Source: Phlegmacium glaucopus
Taxonomy: Eukaryota; Basidiomycota; Agaricomycetes; Agaricales; Cortinariaceae
Length of the DNA: 64,000 nt
Direction of reading: 5' to 3'
Assembly: GCA_015039465.1 (NCBI GenBank)
Contig: MU130381.1
Coordinates: forward strand, 254,312-318,311
Within the stretch, counting starts at the first letter, position 1, and every line of letters begins with the position of its first letter. Shown in pieces: positions 19,004 through 41,408 of this stretch. The notes under the pieces are model-generated. The model ran no database searches, had not been told where the DNA came from, and saw only the letters and a list, made by a program, of their open reading frames with translations. Both the position numbers and the translations under genes were made by a program.

Positions 19004-20776
19004 TTAGATATCAAATCTACGAACGATAATTTTTCCTGCATAAGCCGTTATGATCCGTCTCTCGTCAAATGATACCGTGTTCTTCGTTGATCGCAGATTG
19101 AAATCTTTTGTTGTGATAGAATGATTAGCAGGAGCGACTTCTGCGCCCGTGCCACCTTCTAGATCCCAAACCCAGATGCTGCCATTCAACCCTAGGCTAA
19201 CACATCGTCCATCGGCAAGAGCCAGGGCAGTTACAGGGCTCGTTTGGCCATATAAAGTTCGTATAAAATTCAACTTGGGTGGAGACGCAGAAACGGAATT
19301 GGATTGAGCAGGAAGGACAAGCCGGTAAAGTTGAAGACCCGTTGGAGAATGTAAGCTAGAGGAAACGGAGTTTGATGAAGATGTGTTCGATGGGGGAGAC
19401 GATGACGATGCAGACGCGGGAGAAGAACATCCATATTCTTGTATTTCATTTCCTGGAGCAAGAACTAGCCATTTCCCGTCACTTTGGGCATCCGCGACTC
19501 GAGAAACTTTGCGACTCCACTGCTCACGTATCGCGCGAAGTTTAATTTCGTCTACCCATGCCAAAGGTACGTCAACGGCACGGACTGTCCGAGTCGTTAT
19601 TACACCCATTGAAGATGGTGAAACATGTTTGAATTCCTCGAAAAACGTAGGTGGTGTTAGAAGTGACCGAGAATCCATCGAAAGTGTCAAACTTTTAGAT
19701 ATCATTAGTTCCGTCGCACCAACGGACCAGTGGCCGGGATATACGGGAACTGAATATGCAAGAACAAGTTTGTATGTCGTAGGAGACGGCGTAGACAAGA
19801 CAAGGGAGGCAGGGGGATAGGATGTAAAGGAGCTTAAGGTTTGCGTGAGTCGTATTACACCTGACGACAGGTCGTAAAGGGAGAGTGAGAAGCTCCGAGA
19901 TAATGTTACAAGAAGAGGATGATGATACACAGCCTTGATTATGGGAGAAGCCCTGGAACAGGGTCCTGGCGGTTTATATGAGAACTTGTGCAACAGATCG
20001 AGAGGCGCGTTGTGATTAAATTCAAACACGGAGAACTCGCCGGTAGACAAGAACCCCGCAAGGGACATGTGTCCGGATGTGGGAGGCGACTGGTCTAAAG
20101 CTAACGCTGTGATTGCCGCCACCCCTTGTTGAGAGGATTCAAATGTAAGCGCTTGTTGCCTGTTTGGTGGGAAAGTTATGATTATCGTAGGATTCTGTGA
20201 AGATGAAGAGGTAGCCGTAATTGTTAAGGAACCAGCCAAAACGATATGTGACTGTTGCTCGAACATATAGTCATCATAGTTTAGGTACGGTGGATGTAAA
20301 GGTAGACTCGGGGTAAATAATTCCACCAGACAGCGACCTGGAACAATATTAATGCACAACAGAAAAAACAGAATTCCAAGGACCTTACCTTTCTTCCAGT
20401 TTGAGCTGATACGAAACATCCATTTCCAGTCCTTGAGTTGGTCTGTTTTGGCACGACCTGGTAATGGTTTTACTTCTCGACCATCGGCTCGACTGATAAA
20501 GCCTTTCGAGCCACGTAAACGAGTACGTCCATAGGTTCTCAAATATAGGTTCCTCCACAGTTCGTTATCTGCTGCAAGTCGTGCCCAGTTATGGTTGGTA
20601 GGTTGAGATACGCAGAGATCCACCCAAGAAAGATATGAGAAAATGTAGAGGATGAGTTCATCATATAAACAGTCGTCGAACCTCAGAGGTTGAACTGATG
20701 GACTTTTCGCAATTCTGGTGGTATGAAGGCGCTTTGAAGAGGGCAAGGTTGCTGGAGATAGGCTACGTTTCGACAT
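19004..20776 (-). CDS. F-box protein with WD40-like C-terminal region
   Basis: Exons 20776-20389 and 20337-19004 (intron 51 nt, in frame, GTAAGG to CCAG) give 573 residues. Residues about 31-75 form an F-box (CLYDELILYIFSYLSWVDLC, then NHNWARLAADNELWRNLYLR). A linker with KDWKWMFRISSNWKKG follows. The rest alternates hydrophobic strands and loops, ending in a recognisable WD repeat (GQTSPVTALALADGRCVSLG, then GSIWVWDLEGG). Expected role: substrate receptor of an SCF ubiquitin ligase. Its start is only 100 bp from the divergent WDR83-like gene. Confidence 0.85.
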   Translation of the reverse strand: MSKRSLSPATLPSSKRLHTTRIAKSPSVQPLRFDDCLYDELILYIFSYLSWVDLCVSQPTNHNWARLAADNELWRNLYLRTYGRTRLRGSKGFISRADGREVKPLPGRAKTDQLKDWKWMFRISSNWKKGKVLGILFFLLCINIVPGRCLVELFTPSLPLHPPYLNYDDYMFEQQSHIVLAGSLTITATSSSSQNPTIIITFPPNRQQALTFESSQQGVAAITALALDQSPPTSGHMSLAGFLSTGEFSVFEFNHNAPLDLLHKFSYKPPGPCSRASPIIKAVYHHPLLVTLSRSFSLSLYDLSSGVIRLTQTLSSFTSYPPASLVLSTPSPTTYKLVLAYSVPVYPGHWSVGATELMISKSLTLSMDSRSLLTPPTFFEEFKHVSPSSMGVITTRTVRAVDVPLAWVDEIKLRAIREQWSRKVSRVADAQSDGKWLVLAPGNEIQEYGCSSPASASSSSPPSNTSSSNSVSSSLHSPTGLQLYRLVLPAQSNSVSASPPKLNFIRTLYGQTSPVTALALADGRCVSLGLNGSIWVWDLEGGTGAEVAPANHSITTKDFNLRSTKNTVSFDERRIITAYAGKIIVRRFDI

Positions 20777-35560: not shown

Positions 35561-38500
35561 ATGGAAATCTCCAAGAAGCGCAAACGTGATGTAGATTATC
35601 CCAGAATCACTTATGAAGCCACAACCAAGGTGTTCGACCGTTTATTTAAAGGTACAGACTAGACAAAAAAATCCTGTAAAATTTGGAGTCGCTGAATGGT
35701 TACACGTTTAGAAGAATCATTAGAGGAGATGAAAAATGTTGTGCGCAAGAAACTTGGCTTGTCTTCTTCACTTCCGGTGCATCTTTGTCAACTGCGAGAC
35801 GGAAAAGCGGTCGTCCTGGAAGATGGTATTCGCCTCATCTCACCTATCTGTTTCATTGTAAGAGGCTGAAAAAAGGTTGTCTCTCTGTAAGATGACGACT
35901 TTGACGCGTTTTACGCTTCTGTTAACTCGACTCTGGTGGTTAAAATTAAGGTATATTTCGGCGACGACCAACCTCCACCTGCCATCGGTTCTGGTGCAGG
36001 CTTGACTGGCGGGCCAATGCAATTACTGGAATCTCCGACGGTTTACCATGCAGTTACGGATGACCATAGTCTCTCGAAAAAACGCAAAGTCGCTTTTATT
36101 GAGCCAATTTCGGAGCCACTAGGAGACAGTGGTGGAGAACCGAAGGAAATCCAGCAGACATTGACTTTGGACAATTCGAGTGAACCCTCAGCTAATTCCG
36201 ATGTTCTTCCAGAGGTGCCTGCTACCATTGACGTAATTTCTGTCGATAATCAGGAAGCACGGGGAACGGGCGATGTCGCAACGCAGCCGGGGAATAGGAA
36301 GGAAAGTAAAAAGAAAGACAAAGCCGCAGATCCCACATTGGAGGGTCAGTCTTTGGGGGAGCAGGCTCAGGTTGACGTAGTGGTTAATGAGTCGTCGGAT
36401 TCCAACTTGAAAGGATCAACTAAGAAGACGAAGGGTGAAAATACACCACACGCTACCAAGTCGAAAAAGCGTCCTAGGACAAGCACCGCAGACGATAGTG
36501 TCCAGCCTGTTACCGAGGTGTTAGATGGCACTACAGCTATAGGGACAGACGACACTGAAGACCATCCTAGGTCATCAAAGAAATCAAAACAAAAACATAA
36601 AAATTCGGAAGATCAAGGAAATGCTGCCACGGATCTCACTGACGACGGTCAAGCGACGAAAGTCCCAGAAGCGTCCGAACCTCAGACCCCATCTAATGGA
36701 CAAGCAGATCCTTCAGAGGCTGATGTATTAACTCAGCTGTCAGAGAAGAAGAAAAAGAGTCGAAAAAAAAAAGAAGTGGTCGAGGTCGTGATTGCTAGCA
36801 AGCAGTTCAATGTTGCCTCGAGCACGTCCAAATCAATTAAAGACAAGACTTCGAACAATGCAATAGTGGCGCAGCATGCTAAAAGTAGGTTCTGGAAAAC
36901 ATTCATCTTTTCTCGCCTTTCACAATGTGCTTCAGTACAGGATCTACAACTGCCTGCATCTACTTCAGGATCTGAAACCAGTAGGGGTTTCGTGTTATCG
37001 TATGTGTTAAAATGCAATGCTTAAAGTATCTCCATTAGACCCTAAAGGAAGGACGAAGAATCCAGGACTAAATCAAAACTTAAACATGCCCACCAAACCA
37101 ACTCTGAGTGAGTTTATAAAGTTGGTTATTATCCCTTGTTGATGTGCTCTCCAGATGCGACACAAACTGAGAAGGAAACGACGTCTTCAGCTTCGGCAAA
37201 AAGTTCGTGCCTGTCCAGCTCTTATACCGTCCATGGGCTGATTATGATTGCAAAGGAAAAACTATACCGAAGAAATCCGGGAACAAGGAGGCGCCTGTCG
37301 GCCTAGCCGCAGTGGCCAATAGTGGTGAAGGTCAGCGATATTAGTACCAAGTCGCCTTCGCTTTCTGAGCTGCTTTGTATTTCGGAGATAGATCAGGCGC
37401 TGCGCACTGATGTTACAGCAGCGACCAGAGCCGCAGTGGATGCCATATTGGCCAGAAATTCTTTGGCCAGCAAAGGGAGTAGGGAAACCCCGACCCGCTC
37501 TTCTCCTTTGGTTGATCTTACTGCTCCATCGCCCTTGGCCAGTTCCATCGCGCCTGCAACATCAAATTCTCCCGATAATCAACCGAATAACGCCAGCACT
37601 ACCGCAAAACAGTCTGAAACCGTTTCGAAATGCCCTATATGCGACCAAACACCATCTCACGCTCGGTCTAGGTGTCCTATAATCAAATCTGGTATCAAAG
37701 CAATGCGTCAGCGAATAGCCGAGTTACAGCGAGACACACCTGAGGGTGACAATAAAGAGCGAGAGATGGTTATCGAAGAGTTGGGGCGAATAATCGACAA
37801 GAGAACTCAACGTAAAACGCCTACAGCAGAAAAGAAGTCAACGAATGTTAAATCCACAGCAGACAAACCTGTCGTCTCACCCACTCTTGTTGCTGACAGT
37901 TCTCGTGTTAATCCACGTCCAGGGGCCTCCAAGGCTCCTCAACCTATTAAGCCTACATCGCAGGAGTTGCCCCATCTTGCGGAATCTTTAACATTCAGTG
38001 ATGTTTCATCATACACGGTACGGGACTTAGAAGCCCTTATTCGCGGTCCAGGCATCACGCTGGCTGACGTGCCTTCATCTGATTCAAGCGAAAACGAAGA
38101 AGAGGTCCTGGAAGACGAGTCTGACGAAGTGCAAGAAAAATCCTTCCGGTCTCAGGGTCGCATCCGATACCCAAGCTCGTCAGAGGAGGGAGAAGAGGAG
38201 GAGGAGGCAGAGGAGGCAAGTCCTTTCGTGCCATCAATCATACCCCTGCCGATCAAGTCTGCCAGTGAGCTATCGAATGAGGATGAATTGTCCCGCTCTG
38301 GGGACTTCCGAGGCGGCATCAGTTCCTTCCACGAGGTCAATGACTTAGGAAGCTCCCATGAAATCGATAAAACTGGTGACGCCGCTGTCAACGATGCCCA
38401 CGCTCTTGACTTCTCCCATCTTAGCGGACCAGAAATTTCAGAGAACGGACAGAAGGTCACCAATGATGGTCATATTTTGAGTGCCCTGGATGAACGTCGG

Positions 38501-39664
38501 GTCCTTGAAGAGAGTGAGCCTGAGTCGGTGTCAGACGTGGCTAAACCTCCGGTGACTATTACAACTCCACAATCGGATCCCATCGAGGCATCCGAAAAGC
38601 CATCTTCCCCGCAAAGTCCCATTGAAGAGGATATTCATCCTCTGCAGTCCACTCCCAAGGCTGAGGTTGCTATTCGCACGAGGAGTCAACGAAAGAATTC
38701 TACTTTGGTCAGGAAAACTACCGATTTGACTCCTAAACTCGACAGTGTTTCTAAAACGGGCGTTGATGATGCTAATGGCATCAACAATAAATCCAAGTCG
38801 GCCAAGAAAACGGGAGGTTTGAAGCGCATCACAGAATTACCCATTCCTGTTCCTGCAATAAGAGTGATCAGAGCTGCGGGGATGCAAACCCGTCGGCAAG
38901 CCCGGGAAGGGGAAGAAAAGGCAGATGAGCATGGTCCGACCAAAGCATCTCAGGCTAAGCAAAAAAATGGCAAGTTGTCTGCTTCCACGACTTCACCTAA
39001 TGCGACAAAGACTCCTGCGAAGCTCGCCCGAACCCCTGTCAAAACGCCTGCAAAAGTTCCGGTCTCTTCAAAGGGAGAACACCCACAAACGAAATCTGTT
39101 ACTGTGATTCAAAATGTTCTTGAAACTACGGAGTCCGCACCCAGTAATGAAGAACAGTCACTTGCTTCGTGGGCTGTTCTTCAGGGAAATTCTCAGCTTG
39201 AAAATGAAACATCTGGAATGGTGGACGAGCTAGATTCTAGTCCCAATATATCTATTGGAAAGCCAGCATCTCCAGCAGTAGTGGATGAAGTTTCTGAAGG
39301 ACTAGATCCTTTGTTTCTGGCTTCTGATACCCAGCAGTCGTTCCCCTATTCTCAGTATCCTAACTTCAGTCCAGAAATTCTGGCCTCTGAAGACGAAGAA
39401 GATGAAGTGGAAGCGTCCGTTGTCAAGAATTCATCGAAATTCCGTTCCCTGACTGAAATTGCCAGGCAGCCGACTCTTTTTACACCCACATCACGTCTTG
39501 CTCGAACTAGCAATGCTAAGGAGGAGGTGATGAACTTGTATGGACGTGCTAGGAAAGGTTCAGAAGAGGAGTCGGATTCGGATACTGAGAGTGATTCTGA
39601 GGCAGAAGCAAAGGTGCGGACGTCACATATTCCGATGTCGAGAATAGCAGGTACTAGTAACTAG
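35561..39664 (+). CDS. Large disordered nucleolar-type protein (Net1/Dnt1-like N-terminus)
   Basis: A phase-consistent model joins 35561-35651, 35712-35825, 35892-36884, 36936-36980, 37027-37107, 37172-37330 and 37392-39664 (1,251 residues). The N-terminus (about 30-90) looks like a ubiquitin/PB1-type fold: LEEMKNVVRKKLGLSSSLPV, LCQLRDGKAVVLEDDDDFDA, LVVKIKVYFG. Similar N-termini occur in Net1/Dnt1 Cdc14-binding nucleolar proteins. A middle block (FSFGKKFVPVQLLYRPWADY) looks conserved. Further on is a zinc-knuckle-like CPICDQTPSHARSRCPI. The rest is Ser/Glu/Lys-rich and disordered, with KTPAKLARTPVKTPAK-type basic repeats. Exon 6 uses an unusual acceptor (CTGAG) and intron 6 a weak GTCAGC donor, so 37100-37400 is the least certain part and the unit could be two genes. 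Confidence 0.65.
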
Positions 39665-39819
39665 TAGATGATTTCTTGTTTTGTATCATAGTAAGTTGTA
39701 GCATAGCACGTGGATCGATGGTTTATGTAATCAGTGGGGAGATATAAAAATCCGCAAAAAAAACATTTGTCTCTTCTTCACTGTTTGACTCTTCCAAGCC
39801 TAATCCTGCCTCTTTGTTC

Positions 39820-39945
39820 ATGATATTCACCCAGAACACCAGGGACGAGTATGCTTTCCTCTTATTTCTTTCTCATAATCTCTCTTCTCACCCTTTGACT
39901 CGTAGTTATCTCAGTGACCTCGTATTTTCTCTCCTGAAATTCTGA
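39820..39945 (+). promoter_or_regulatory. Upstream ORF of CPA1, arginine-attenuator-peptide-like, spliced
   Basis: In the CPA1 leader an ATG at 39820 opens a short frame with an intron-like GTATGC-to-CGTAG segment at 39849-39905 (57 nt, with a TTTGAC branch-like site). Spliced, it encodes 22 residues with the core D-D-Y-L-S-D-L-V-F and stops at 39943-39945, 11 nt before the CPA1 ATG. Arginine attenuator peptides of fungal CPA1/arg-2 leaders (known in Neurospora and yeast) carry Q-D-Y-L/I-S-D-H and stall ribosomes at the uORF stop when arginine is high. The matching part is D-Y-L-S-D; the usual H-L/I-W that follows is L-V-F here. The intron is in frame and free of stops, so the unspliced form keeps the same C-terminus. 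Confidence 0.72.
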
Positions 39946-39956
39946 AAAGACAAAAC

Positions 39957-41408
39957 ATGTTTCTTCGCTATATGATCCGTGTCCCCCAACTCTCTCGAGG
40001 ACTCGCTACCCACGTAGGTCCAGCGTTGGCTACGCCAGCTATCCTCCACCTCAAGACTGGTCAATCCTTCTATGGCAAGTCCTTTGGCGCTCCCAAGAGC
40101 ATCTTTGGAGAGACCGTTTTCTCCACCTCGATCACATCTTGTATGTTGTCTGTCCATCTCGACTCCCCATTTTATTCTCATCTTCTTCCTAGATACAGAA
40201 TCTATGACCGACCCCTCTTACCGCGGTCAAATCTTGGTTTTCACCAGTCCTATGATTGGGAATTATGGGGTACCTGTCAACAAGGCGCCTTTTAATTCCC
40301 AGGATGTTGGAGTCATCCTTGAATCGCAGAATATTCAATGTGCCGCTGTCGTCGTTGGTGACGTCGCGGAAAAATTTTCACACTACACCGCCGTCGAATC
40401 TCTTGCCGCTTGGTGTAAGCGTTATGACGTTCCTGGCATCACAGGCGTTGATACTCGAGCTATCACACGACTCCTGCGCGACCAAGGTACCACGTTAGGA
40501 CGTGTTGCCATTGGCGCAGATACATTGCTTCCTTCTCCAGAAGCAGCTCAATATTGGGATCCTTCTGCGGAGAATTTGGTGGATCAGGTGTCAACCAAGA
40601 TGCCTTACCAATTGAACTCCAACGGCAGCATTAAAATTGCTGTTCTCGACTTTGGAGCCAAAGCCAACATTCTCCGCTCTCTCGTCCGTCGCGATGTCGC
40701 AGTCACCGTCCTCCCATGGAACTACGACTTCAATTCTGTACGAGACCAGTTTGATGGTCTATTTTTGACCAATGGGCCAGGTGACCCTAGTCATTGCATG
40801 GAAGCAGCTCTCGAATTACGTCGCACATTGCAAGAATGGAATAAGCCTATCTTCGGTATTTGTATGGGTCATCAGATCATCGGAATGGCTGCAGGGCTCG
40901 ATGCCTATCGCATGACCTTTGGTAACCGTGGCCATAATCAACCGGTACTGGCTTTGGCTTCTGCTGGTTCAATCAAAGCGGGAAGAGTATATGTGACGAG
41001 GTAAGTGTTCTACTTAATGGTTCACAACTATTTTATTGATGATTTTCTTTCAAGTCAAAACCATCAGTATGCGTTGAAGTTGCAGGACCCCTTCCCTCAG
41101 GGATGGGAACCCTTTTTCATCAACTGCAACGATTCCTCTGTAGAAGGCATCAAATCCACTGAGGAGTCTGGAAAGAAGGTCTGGGGTGTCCAATTCCACC
41201 CTGAGAGCGCAGGTGGTCCCCTTGATACGATGGAGGTCAGTTGTGATGTCTGATTTTTGTATACGTAATCTCATCTTCCCTTCCCGTACAGATGTTTACA
41301 GATTTTGTCTCTGAGTGCAAAGCCCATAAGGCTCAGGTTGAATATTCGTCTGCTTACGACAGAGTCGAGATTCCCCTGCAGCGAGTTGCAGTAACCGCTA
41401 CTGCCTGA
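39957..41408 (+). CDS. CPA1: Carbamoyl-phosphate synthase, arginine-specific small subunit (glutaminase)
   Basis: Exons 39957-40140, 40193-41000, 41055-41235 and 41292-41408 total 1,290 nt (429 residues). The N-terminal 25 residues are basic and hydroxylated (MFLRYMIRVPQLSRGLATHV), a likely mitochondrial presequence. The CPSase small-chain domain follows (ILHLKTGQSFYGKSFG, SYRGQILVFTSPMIGNYGVP, GITGVDTRAITRLLRDQGT). The class I glutaminase has IAVLDFGAKANILRSLVRR, FLTNGPGDPSHC, the nucleophile Cys in FGICMGHQIIG, and the His/Glu pair in WGVQFHPESAGGP. It supplies ammonia to the large subunit for arginine synthesis. Regulation through the upstream peptide frame is inferred. Confidence 0.97.

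What the first reader, a model, noticed from the sequence alone, without database searches (positions are those of the whole stretch)
39820..39945. Intron-containing arginine attenuator peptide uORF in a basidiomycete CPA1 leader
The uORF sits in the expected place (stop 11 nt before CPA1) and has the expected length (22 codons when spliced). It matches the attenuator core at D-Y-L-S-D. The His-Leu/Ile-Trp that follows in the Neurospora and yeast peptides is Leu-Val-Phe here. A 57-nt intron interrupts the peptide just before the core Tyr, and since it is in frame and stop-free, splicing changes only the N-terminal half. That gives two possible peptides with the same stalling end, an arrangement I do not know from described systems.
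Basis: partly seen in the sequence, partly recalled or inferred. Interest (0 to 1): 0.8.

Follow-up and report, generated by a model that had tools for sequence, protein, structure and literature searches.

The report
Splicing-built arginine sensor peptide in mushroom
In a mushroom-forming fungus, the short peptide that probably shuts off an arginine-making enzyme when arginine is plentiful is interrupted by an intron, and removing that intron creates the amino acid this kind of sensor depends on; related database sequences share the arrangement.

Summary
In detail: a uORF (39820-39945, +) ends 11 nt before CPA1 and contains a 57-nt intron candidate (39849-39905). Spliced, it reads MIFTQNTRDDYLSDLVFSLLKF. 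The decisive Asp codon (GA|T) exists only after splicing; the unspliced frame has Ser (R-S-Y-L-S-D). Asp-to-Asn at this place abolishes arginine-dependent stalling in the yeast peptide (PMC7969011, passages). An open frame through such an intron is expected about 1 time in 5. Protein searches gave nine unnamed relatives: one in joined form (MLFTQNTRDDYLSDLVFSLINL), five read through an intron at the same place and phase, two (weak E) with introns of 65 and 53 nt, one (weak E) that stops inside. So intron position and TRD-D-YLSD-[LY]-VFSL recur; the open frame does not. Most likely this is a diverged arginine attenuator peptide made by ordinary splicing, with Leu-Val-Phe where ascomycetes have His-Leu/Ile-Trp. 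It does not match the Pfam AAP model. Splicing and arginine response are untested here, and the relatives could not be linked to CPA1.

The parts
39743..39749 (+). TATAAAA, likely TATA box of CPA1; begins 77 nt before the uORF ATG
   Evidence: Sequence. Transcription start not measured. Three further ATGs (39668, 39718, 39725) lie before it.
39820..39848 (+). uORF exon 1: ATG ATA TTC ACC CAG AAC ACC AGG GAC GA (M-I-F-T-Q-N-T-R-D plus first two bases of an Asp codon)
   Evidence: MIFTQNTRDE recurs in P0129, P0130 and P0136; MLFTQNTRD in P0128.
39849..39905 (+). 57-nt intron, phase 2, GTATGC...TTGAC...CGTAG
   Evidence: Best of 9 GT-AG pairs in the leader. Same position and phase in relatives read through it; absent in P0128, which has the joined peptide. 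Splicing in this species not observed.
39906..39945 (+). uORF exon 2: [T] Y-L-S-D-L-V-F-S-L-L-K-F stop TGA; the first T completes the GA|T Asp codon
   Evidence: Y-L-S-D is present in all 8 relatives whose exon 2 is visible.
39851..39898 (+). second ATG frame (15 codons plus stop), present only if the intron is retained
39906..39914 (+). nine nt lost if a second AG (ending at 39914) were the 3' splice site; would give TRDD-D-LVF, without Y-L-S
   Evidence: Pair 39849-39914 scores 18.63. P0128 shows the upstream AG's product in a relative; use here unknown.
39946..39956 (+). 11-nt spacer between uORF stop and CPA1 ATG
39957..41408 (+). CPA1, carbamoyl-phosphate synthase small chain, exons split by introns 40141-40192, 41001-41054, 41236-41291

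Best explanation
The leader encodes a diverged arginine attenuator peptide. The pre-mRNA is spliced in the ordinary way; joining GA and T creates the Asp that precedes Tyr-Leu-Ser-Asp. Ribosomes that start at the poorly placed uORF AUG (T at -3) translate 22 codons. With arginine abundant, the nascent peptide would stall the ribosome at or near the uORF stop, block scanning to CPA1 11 nt downstream and expose the mRNA to nonsense-mediated decay. With little arginine, leaky scanning gives CPA1. Shown here: the frame, the splice signals, the peptide, and recurrence of peptide and intron position elsewhere. Inferred: splicing in this species, translation, arginine response, stalling site and decay. 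(The 'splicing switch' rival below is an addition to this reading, so the odds overlap.)
For: Frame, position and joined peptide. Thr at -3, Asp, Tyr, Leu/Ile, Ser, Asp and 13 residues from the first Asp to the stop coincide with Neurospora and yeast AAP without gaps on that side. Core in 1 of 20000 shuffles, with the Thr in 0 of 20000. Joined form in P0128 on a 1191-nt contig; P0129-P0133 share T-R-D-E-Y-[VI]...S-Y-L-S-D, which is what GA|GTAY...AG|TTAY gives when read through. Implied introns differ in length (66, 48, 54, 51, 54, 65, 53 nt) and sequence while the flanks are nearly invariant. Asp-to-Asn (D13N) abolishes regulation and stalling of the AAP (PMC7969011, passages). In Cryptococcus, also a basidiomycete, the CPA1/arg-2 orthologue has a strongly ribosome-occupied uORF described as an AAP, and the C. 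deneoformans mRNA rises 5-fold in a upf1 deletion (PMC7049704, passages).
Against: Trp19, reported critical in Neurospora (PMC3130931, passage), is Phe here and in all 8 relatives with exon 2 visible. Neither form matches Pfam PF08252; the spliced form scores only 8.5 bits on an ascomycete profile, reached by 4 of 5000 shuffled peptides. P0129 and P0130 run 9 and 12 residues past the Phe instead of 5. No RNA or arginine data for this species were available, and none of the nine relatives could be linked to a CPA1 gene. Three of the nine have E-values above 0.3 (P0134-P0136).
Confidence: 0.8

Rival explanations
1. Splicing switch (an addition to the best explanation): regulated retention of the intron yields an attenuator without its Asp, so CPA1 escapes arginine repression; cells tune arginine feedback through splicing.
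For: The Asp codon exists only after splicing here and, by the same reading, in the relatives that show D-E-Y...S-Y-L-S-D. A retained intron also adds a second, overlapping uORF (39851-39898). The position splitting this codon recurs while the intron sequence does not.
Against: The splice sites look strong and typical (18.84 against 12.7-20.4 for 14 training introns), which suggests constitutive removal. No RNA data. An intron kept by descent alone would look the same.
Confidence: 0.12
2. The uORF is a conserved repressor that acts by diverting ribosomes and through decay, without sensing arginine, having lost the Trp and the His of the arginine-responsive form.
For: Trp19 and the neighbouring His are replaced here and in the 8 relatives with exon 2 visible; Pfam's AAP model does not match.
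Against: TRD, YLSD and VFSL are nearly invariant while the residues between Met and Thr drift, which a sequence-independent uORF would not need; the Asp, Tyr and Leu reported as critical are kept.
Confidence: 0.15
3. Two peptide isoforms with the same stalling end.
For: Both frames end Y-L-S-D-L-V-F-S-L-L-K-F and the intron is 57 nt and stop-free. Five of 8 intron-bearing relatives are also open through the intron, though open frames are what such a database can show.
Against: The unspliced form has Ser for the Asp; 2 of 8 relatives imply introns out of frame and 1 of 8 stops; an open 3n intron is expected about 20% of the time.
Confidence: 0.03
4. Chance resemblance; no attenuator.
For: Short peptide; no match to Pfam's AAP model; 4 of 5000 shuffled peptides score as high on an ascomycete profile.
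Against: 1 of 20000 leader shuffles has the core, and relatives recur in the database, the first new one at E = 1.2e-5 (P0128).
Confidence: 0.02

Closest known systems
Arginine attenuator peptide of Neurospora crassa arg-2 and Saccharomyces cerevisiae CPA1 (PF08252, Leader_CPA1)
   Same: uORF before the same enzyme gene; T-x-x-D-Y-[LI]-S-D; 13 residues from the first Asp to the stop; similar length (22 against 24 and 25 aa).
   Different: Intron inside the codon of the essential Asp; Leu-Val-Phe-Ser-Leu in place of His-[LI]-Trp; Arg-Asp before the Asp instead of Ser/Cys-Gln; no match to PF08252.
uORF of the Cryptococcus CPA1/arg-2 orthologue (PMC7049704; passages seen)
   Same: Basidiomycete; same gene; ribosome-occupied uORF and decay-sensitive mRNA; stated there to encode an AAP verified to repress a reporter in Neurospora extract, citing Hood et al. 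2007.
   Different: Peptide sequence and any intron were not in the passages read, so it is unknown whether it shares the LVF type or the intron.
TgApiAT1 uORF of Toxoplasma gondii (PMC8370653; passages seen)
   Same: Arginine-dependent uORF with a conserved Asp that is needed.
   Different: Different gene (a transporter), 33 aa, described as possible convergence; no intron in the uORF mentioned in the passages read.

Membership tests
Fungal arginine attenuator peptide (AAP) | uORF in the leader of the arginine CPS small-subunit gene | tested here: met
   That the uORF lies in the transcript was not observed.
Fungal arginine attenuator peptide (AAP) | Core Asp-Tyr-Leu (N. crassa positions 12-14) with Ser-Asp | tested here: met
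   Met by the spliced form only. Critical residues as named in PMC3130931 (passage), which prints Lys14 where P0121 has Leu.
Fungal arginine attenuator peptide (AAP) | Trp19 | tested here: not met
   Phe here and in all 8 relatives with exon 2 visible. So it is filed as AAP-like, not as a proven member.
Fungal arginine attenuator peptide (AAP) | Match to PF08252 above its cut-off (18.5 bits) | tested here: not met
   No match to it, spliced or unspliced, nor for P0128-P0131; positive controls P0121 and P0122 score 56 and 58.8.
Fungal arginine attenuator peptide (AAP) | Distance of core to stop as in known AAPs | tested here: met
   13 residues from first Asp, as in P0121 and P0122. Of 8 relatives with exon 2 visible, 6 have 5 residues after the Phe and 2 have 9 and 12, taking the database ends as real stops.
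Fungal arginine attenuator peptide (AAP) | Arginine-dependent ribosome stalling | not testable with these tools
   Needs toeprinting or ribosome profiling.
Spliceosomal intron | Consensus splice sites, typical length, recurring position | tested here: met
Spliceosomal intron | Removed in mRNA of this species | not testable with these tools
   No RNA data; P0128 shows the joined form in a relative.

The most novel reading that the evidence does not exclude
A splicing-gated arrest peptide: the residue on which arginine sensing depends is encoded across an exon junction, so only spliced mRNA can be arrested by arginine, and intron retention lets the gene escape feedback. The split Asp codon would have been kept in these fungi for that reason.
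Probability: 0.12. Interest if true: 0.75.

Novelty: new variant of a known kind. Interest (0 to 1): 0.52.

Why it matters
Arginine attenuator peptides are a textbook case of metabolite-sensing nascent chains, and Trp19 has been counted among their critical residues. In the window and the eight relatives whose second exon is visible that position is Phe, followed by Ser-Leu; this group would offer a natural second solution for how the peptide senses arginine in the exit tunnel. The intron through the Asp codon, together with the diverged tail, helps explain why plain genome translation and the Pfam model miss these peptides, and it gives a cheap test of whether splicing can gate a ribosome arrest peptide.

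Tried and rejected

A second copy of the attenuator in this genome: the exon-2 pattern TAYYTNAGYGAYYTNGTNTTY hits 3 places in 60.5 Mb, control 0, one being the window. C24 (L003) reads F-Y-L-S-D-L-V-F with no AG just before the T of the Tyr codon, and C131 (L004) reads Y-F-S-D-F-V-F; by eye neither has the TRD exon nearby. Rejected as unrelated. This pattern would miss copies with other codons or residues. The second CPS small-chain match in the genome (C181) was not examined beyond the first 200 bases of its locus; that it is the pyrimidine enzyme is recall.

Papers: Hood et al. 2007 and Spevak et al. 2010, the two most likely to have described basidiomycete AAPs, are not held. Ten paper searches listed no paper whose title or shown abstract start tells of an intron in an AAP uORF. 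Of the listed papers I looked into ten, by passages only. Prior description, above all in the two papers not held, cannot be excluded.

The training introns were 12 of the 17 candidate rows plus CPA1 introns 2 and 3; I dropped three alternates sharing a splice site and two weak rows by eye. Only the three CPA1 introns rest on protein homology; the others are unsupervised. The filter excluded in-frame open introns, so the 2 of 14 multiples of 3 say nothing about how common such introns are. The branch-point weights are my own choice, not trained.

Full report
What is there. The window comes from an agaric close to Phlegmacium (Cortinarius): its CPA1 is 99% identical over 92% to the Phlegmacium glaucopus protein, and the next named hits (Crassisporium, Psilocybe, Cyclocybe, Crepidotus, Pholiota) are Agaricales by recall; the 120 hits shown, of 7976, also include other Agaricomycete orders. 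CPA1 starts at 39957, has four exons and 429 aa and matches TIGR01368 at 390 bits. Between the stop of an upstream open frame (39664) and CPA1 lies a short stretch with TATAAAA at 39743; after it the only AUGs before CPA1 are that of the uORF at 39820 and one inside the intron at 39851. The uORF stop is 11 nt before the CPA1 AUG. The uORF AUG has T at -3, the CPA1 AUG has A.

The intron. The pair 39849-39905 (57 nt) is the best-scoring of 9 GT-AG pairs of 45-75 nt in the leader, 18.84 bits, within the range of 14 training introns (12.7-20.4, leave-one-out); 63 of 14702 such pairs on both strands of the window do as well. Removing it gives MIFTQNTRDDYLSDLVFSLLKF. A second AG nine nt downstream scores nearly as well (18.63) and would delete Tyr-Leu-Ser; the relative P0128 has the product of the upstream AG.

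The correction. The intron splits a codon: GA before, T after. Only the spliced mRNA has GAT, Asp, before Tyr-Leu-Ser-Asp. The unspliced frame has AGT, Ser, at that place, and the AG of that codon is the splice site itself. Asp-to-Asn (D13N; the yeast entry P0122 has Asp at 13) is reported to eliminate arginine-induced regulation and stalling (PMC7969011, passages), and Asp12, Tyr13, residue 14 and Trp19 are reported critical in Neurospora (PMC3130931, passage). I saw no test of Asp to Ser. A profile of seven ascomycete AAPs scores the spliced peptide 8.5 bits, the unspliced 1.8 and the form from the second AG not at all; 4 of 5000 shuffled peptides reach 8.5 and 245 of 5000 reach 1.8. Joined forms of the relatives score 7.8-11.4, their read-through forms -1.5 to 1.9. 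So the retained-intron form is not a second attenuator with the same end but probably a dead one.

Relatives. An alignment of the window's two forms with two known AAPs found 11 proteins of 16 candidates: seven AAPs marked PF08252, all ascomycete by name, and four unnamed ones from the jgi, lgn and ena sources, P0128-P0131 (E 1.2e-5, 9.9e-5, 4.5e-4 and 2.8). A second round, with the four in the query, returned 9 of 4599 candidates, five of them new: P0132 (3.5e-6), P0133 (4.7e-5), P0134 (0.34), P0135 (0.64), P0136 (2.0). P0128 (38 aa, 1191-nt contig, no start codon at its 5' end) ends MLFTQNTRDDYLSDLVFSLINL, the joined form; many jgi hits to CPA1 are about as long as the query and uninterrupted on contigs of 1.4-1.7 kb, so this source seems to hold transcript assemblies, and P0128 may be one. 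That is inference; intron loss is the alternative. P0129-P0133 show T-R-D-E-Y-[VI], a variable stretch, then S-Y-L-S-D: what GA|GTAY...AG|TTAY gives when read through. Implied introns are 66, 48, 54, 51 and 54 nt. P0134 and P0135 read exon 1 in another frame; the shifted reading is compatible with MIYNK[FL]TRDEY (0 of 200000 random 12-mers are, at M, T, R, D, E, Y), and the implied introns are 65 and 53 nt, not multiples of 3. P0136 has MIFTQNTRDE and then a stop inside the intron. These three rest on weak E-values plus the exon reading. Because short proteins are called from genomic DNA only where the frame is open, the five open introns are an ascertainment effect. A shuffled 57-nt intron is stop-free 60% of the time, so with the 1-in-3 chance of length the window's open frame is expected in about 20% of cases.

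What is conserved. In the window and the eight relatives with exon 2 visible: Tyr-Leu-Ser-Asp, then Leu (Tyr in P0133), Val-Phe-Ser-Leu. Thr-Arg-Asp precedes the junction in the six relatives P0128-P0133 and in P0136. The residues between Met and Thr vary. Five residues follow the Phe in the window and in 6 of 8 relatives, as five follow the Trp in Neurospora and yeast; P0129 and P0130 have 9 and 12. Stalling need not be at the stop in known AAPs (recalled; the title of Fang et al. [quoted passage not shown]

How it most likely works. As in Neurospora and yeast: leaky scanning past the uORF at low arginine, ribosome arrest by the nascent peptide at high arginine, less CPA1 and faster mRNA decay. 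In Cryptococcus the orthologous mRNA has a strongly ribosome-occupied uORF, and in C. deneoformans it rises 5-fold without Upf1 (PMC7049704, passages). The three downstream CPA1 introns could leave exon-junction complexes after the uORF stop and strengthen decay; that is inference. Splicing is probably constitutive, judging by the sites alone.

Filing. It should work like an AAP, but two of the tested marks of the family are not met: Trp19 and the Pfam model. I therefore call it a diverged, AAP-like peptide and not a proven member. The variant (split Asp codon, LVF type) was not found in what I could read; Hood et al. 2007 and Spevak et al. 2010 were not available and may already contain it.

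Noticed in passing
window 39905-39914: Two acceptor AGs nine nt apart; the downstream one would remove Tyr-Leu-Ser in frame (TRDDDLVF) and destroy the core while keeping the stop.
   Followed up: partly
L003 1501-1521 (G000:C24, - strand): Tyr-Leu-Ser-Asp-Leu-Val-Phe coding match in a 52-aa ORF upstream of, and on the same strand as, frames that look by eye like a sugar transporter; no attenuator exon 1 seen, so likely chance, but the pattern hit 3 places where about 0.1 would be expected from base frequencies (my estimate, no call; the tool's backward control gave 0).
   Followed up: partly
window 37322-39664: 780-aa open frame just upstream of CPA1, rich in acidic and Ser/Thr stretches by eye, no Pfam match.
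   Followed up: no
window 19004-20776, - strand: Open frame matching F-box-like and pof12-type beta-propeller families.
   Followed up: no
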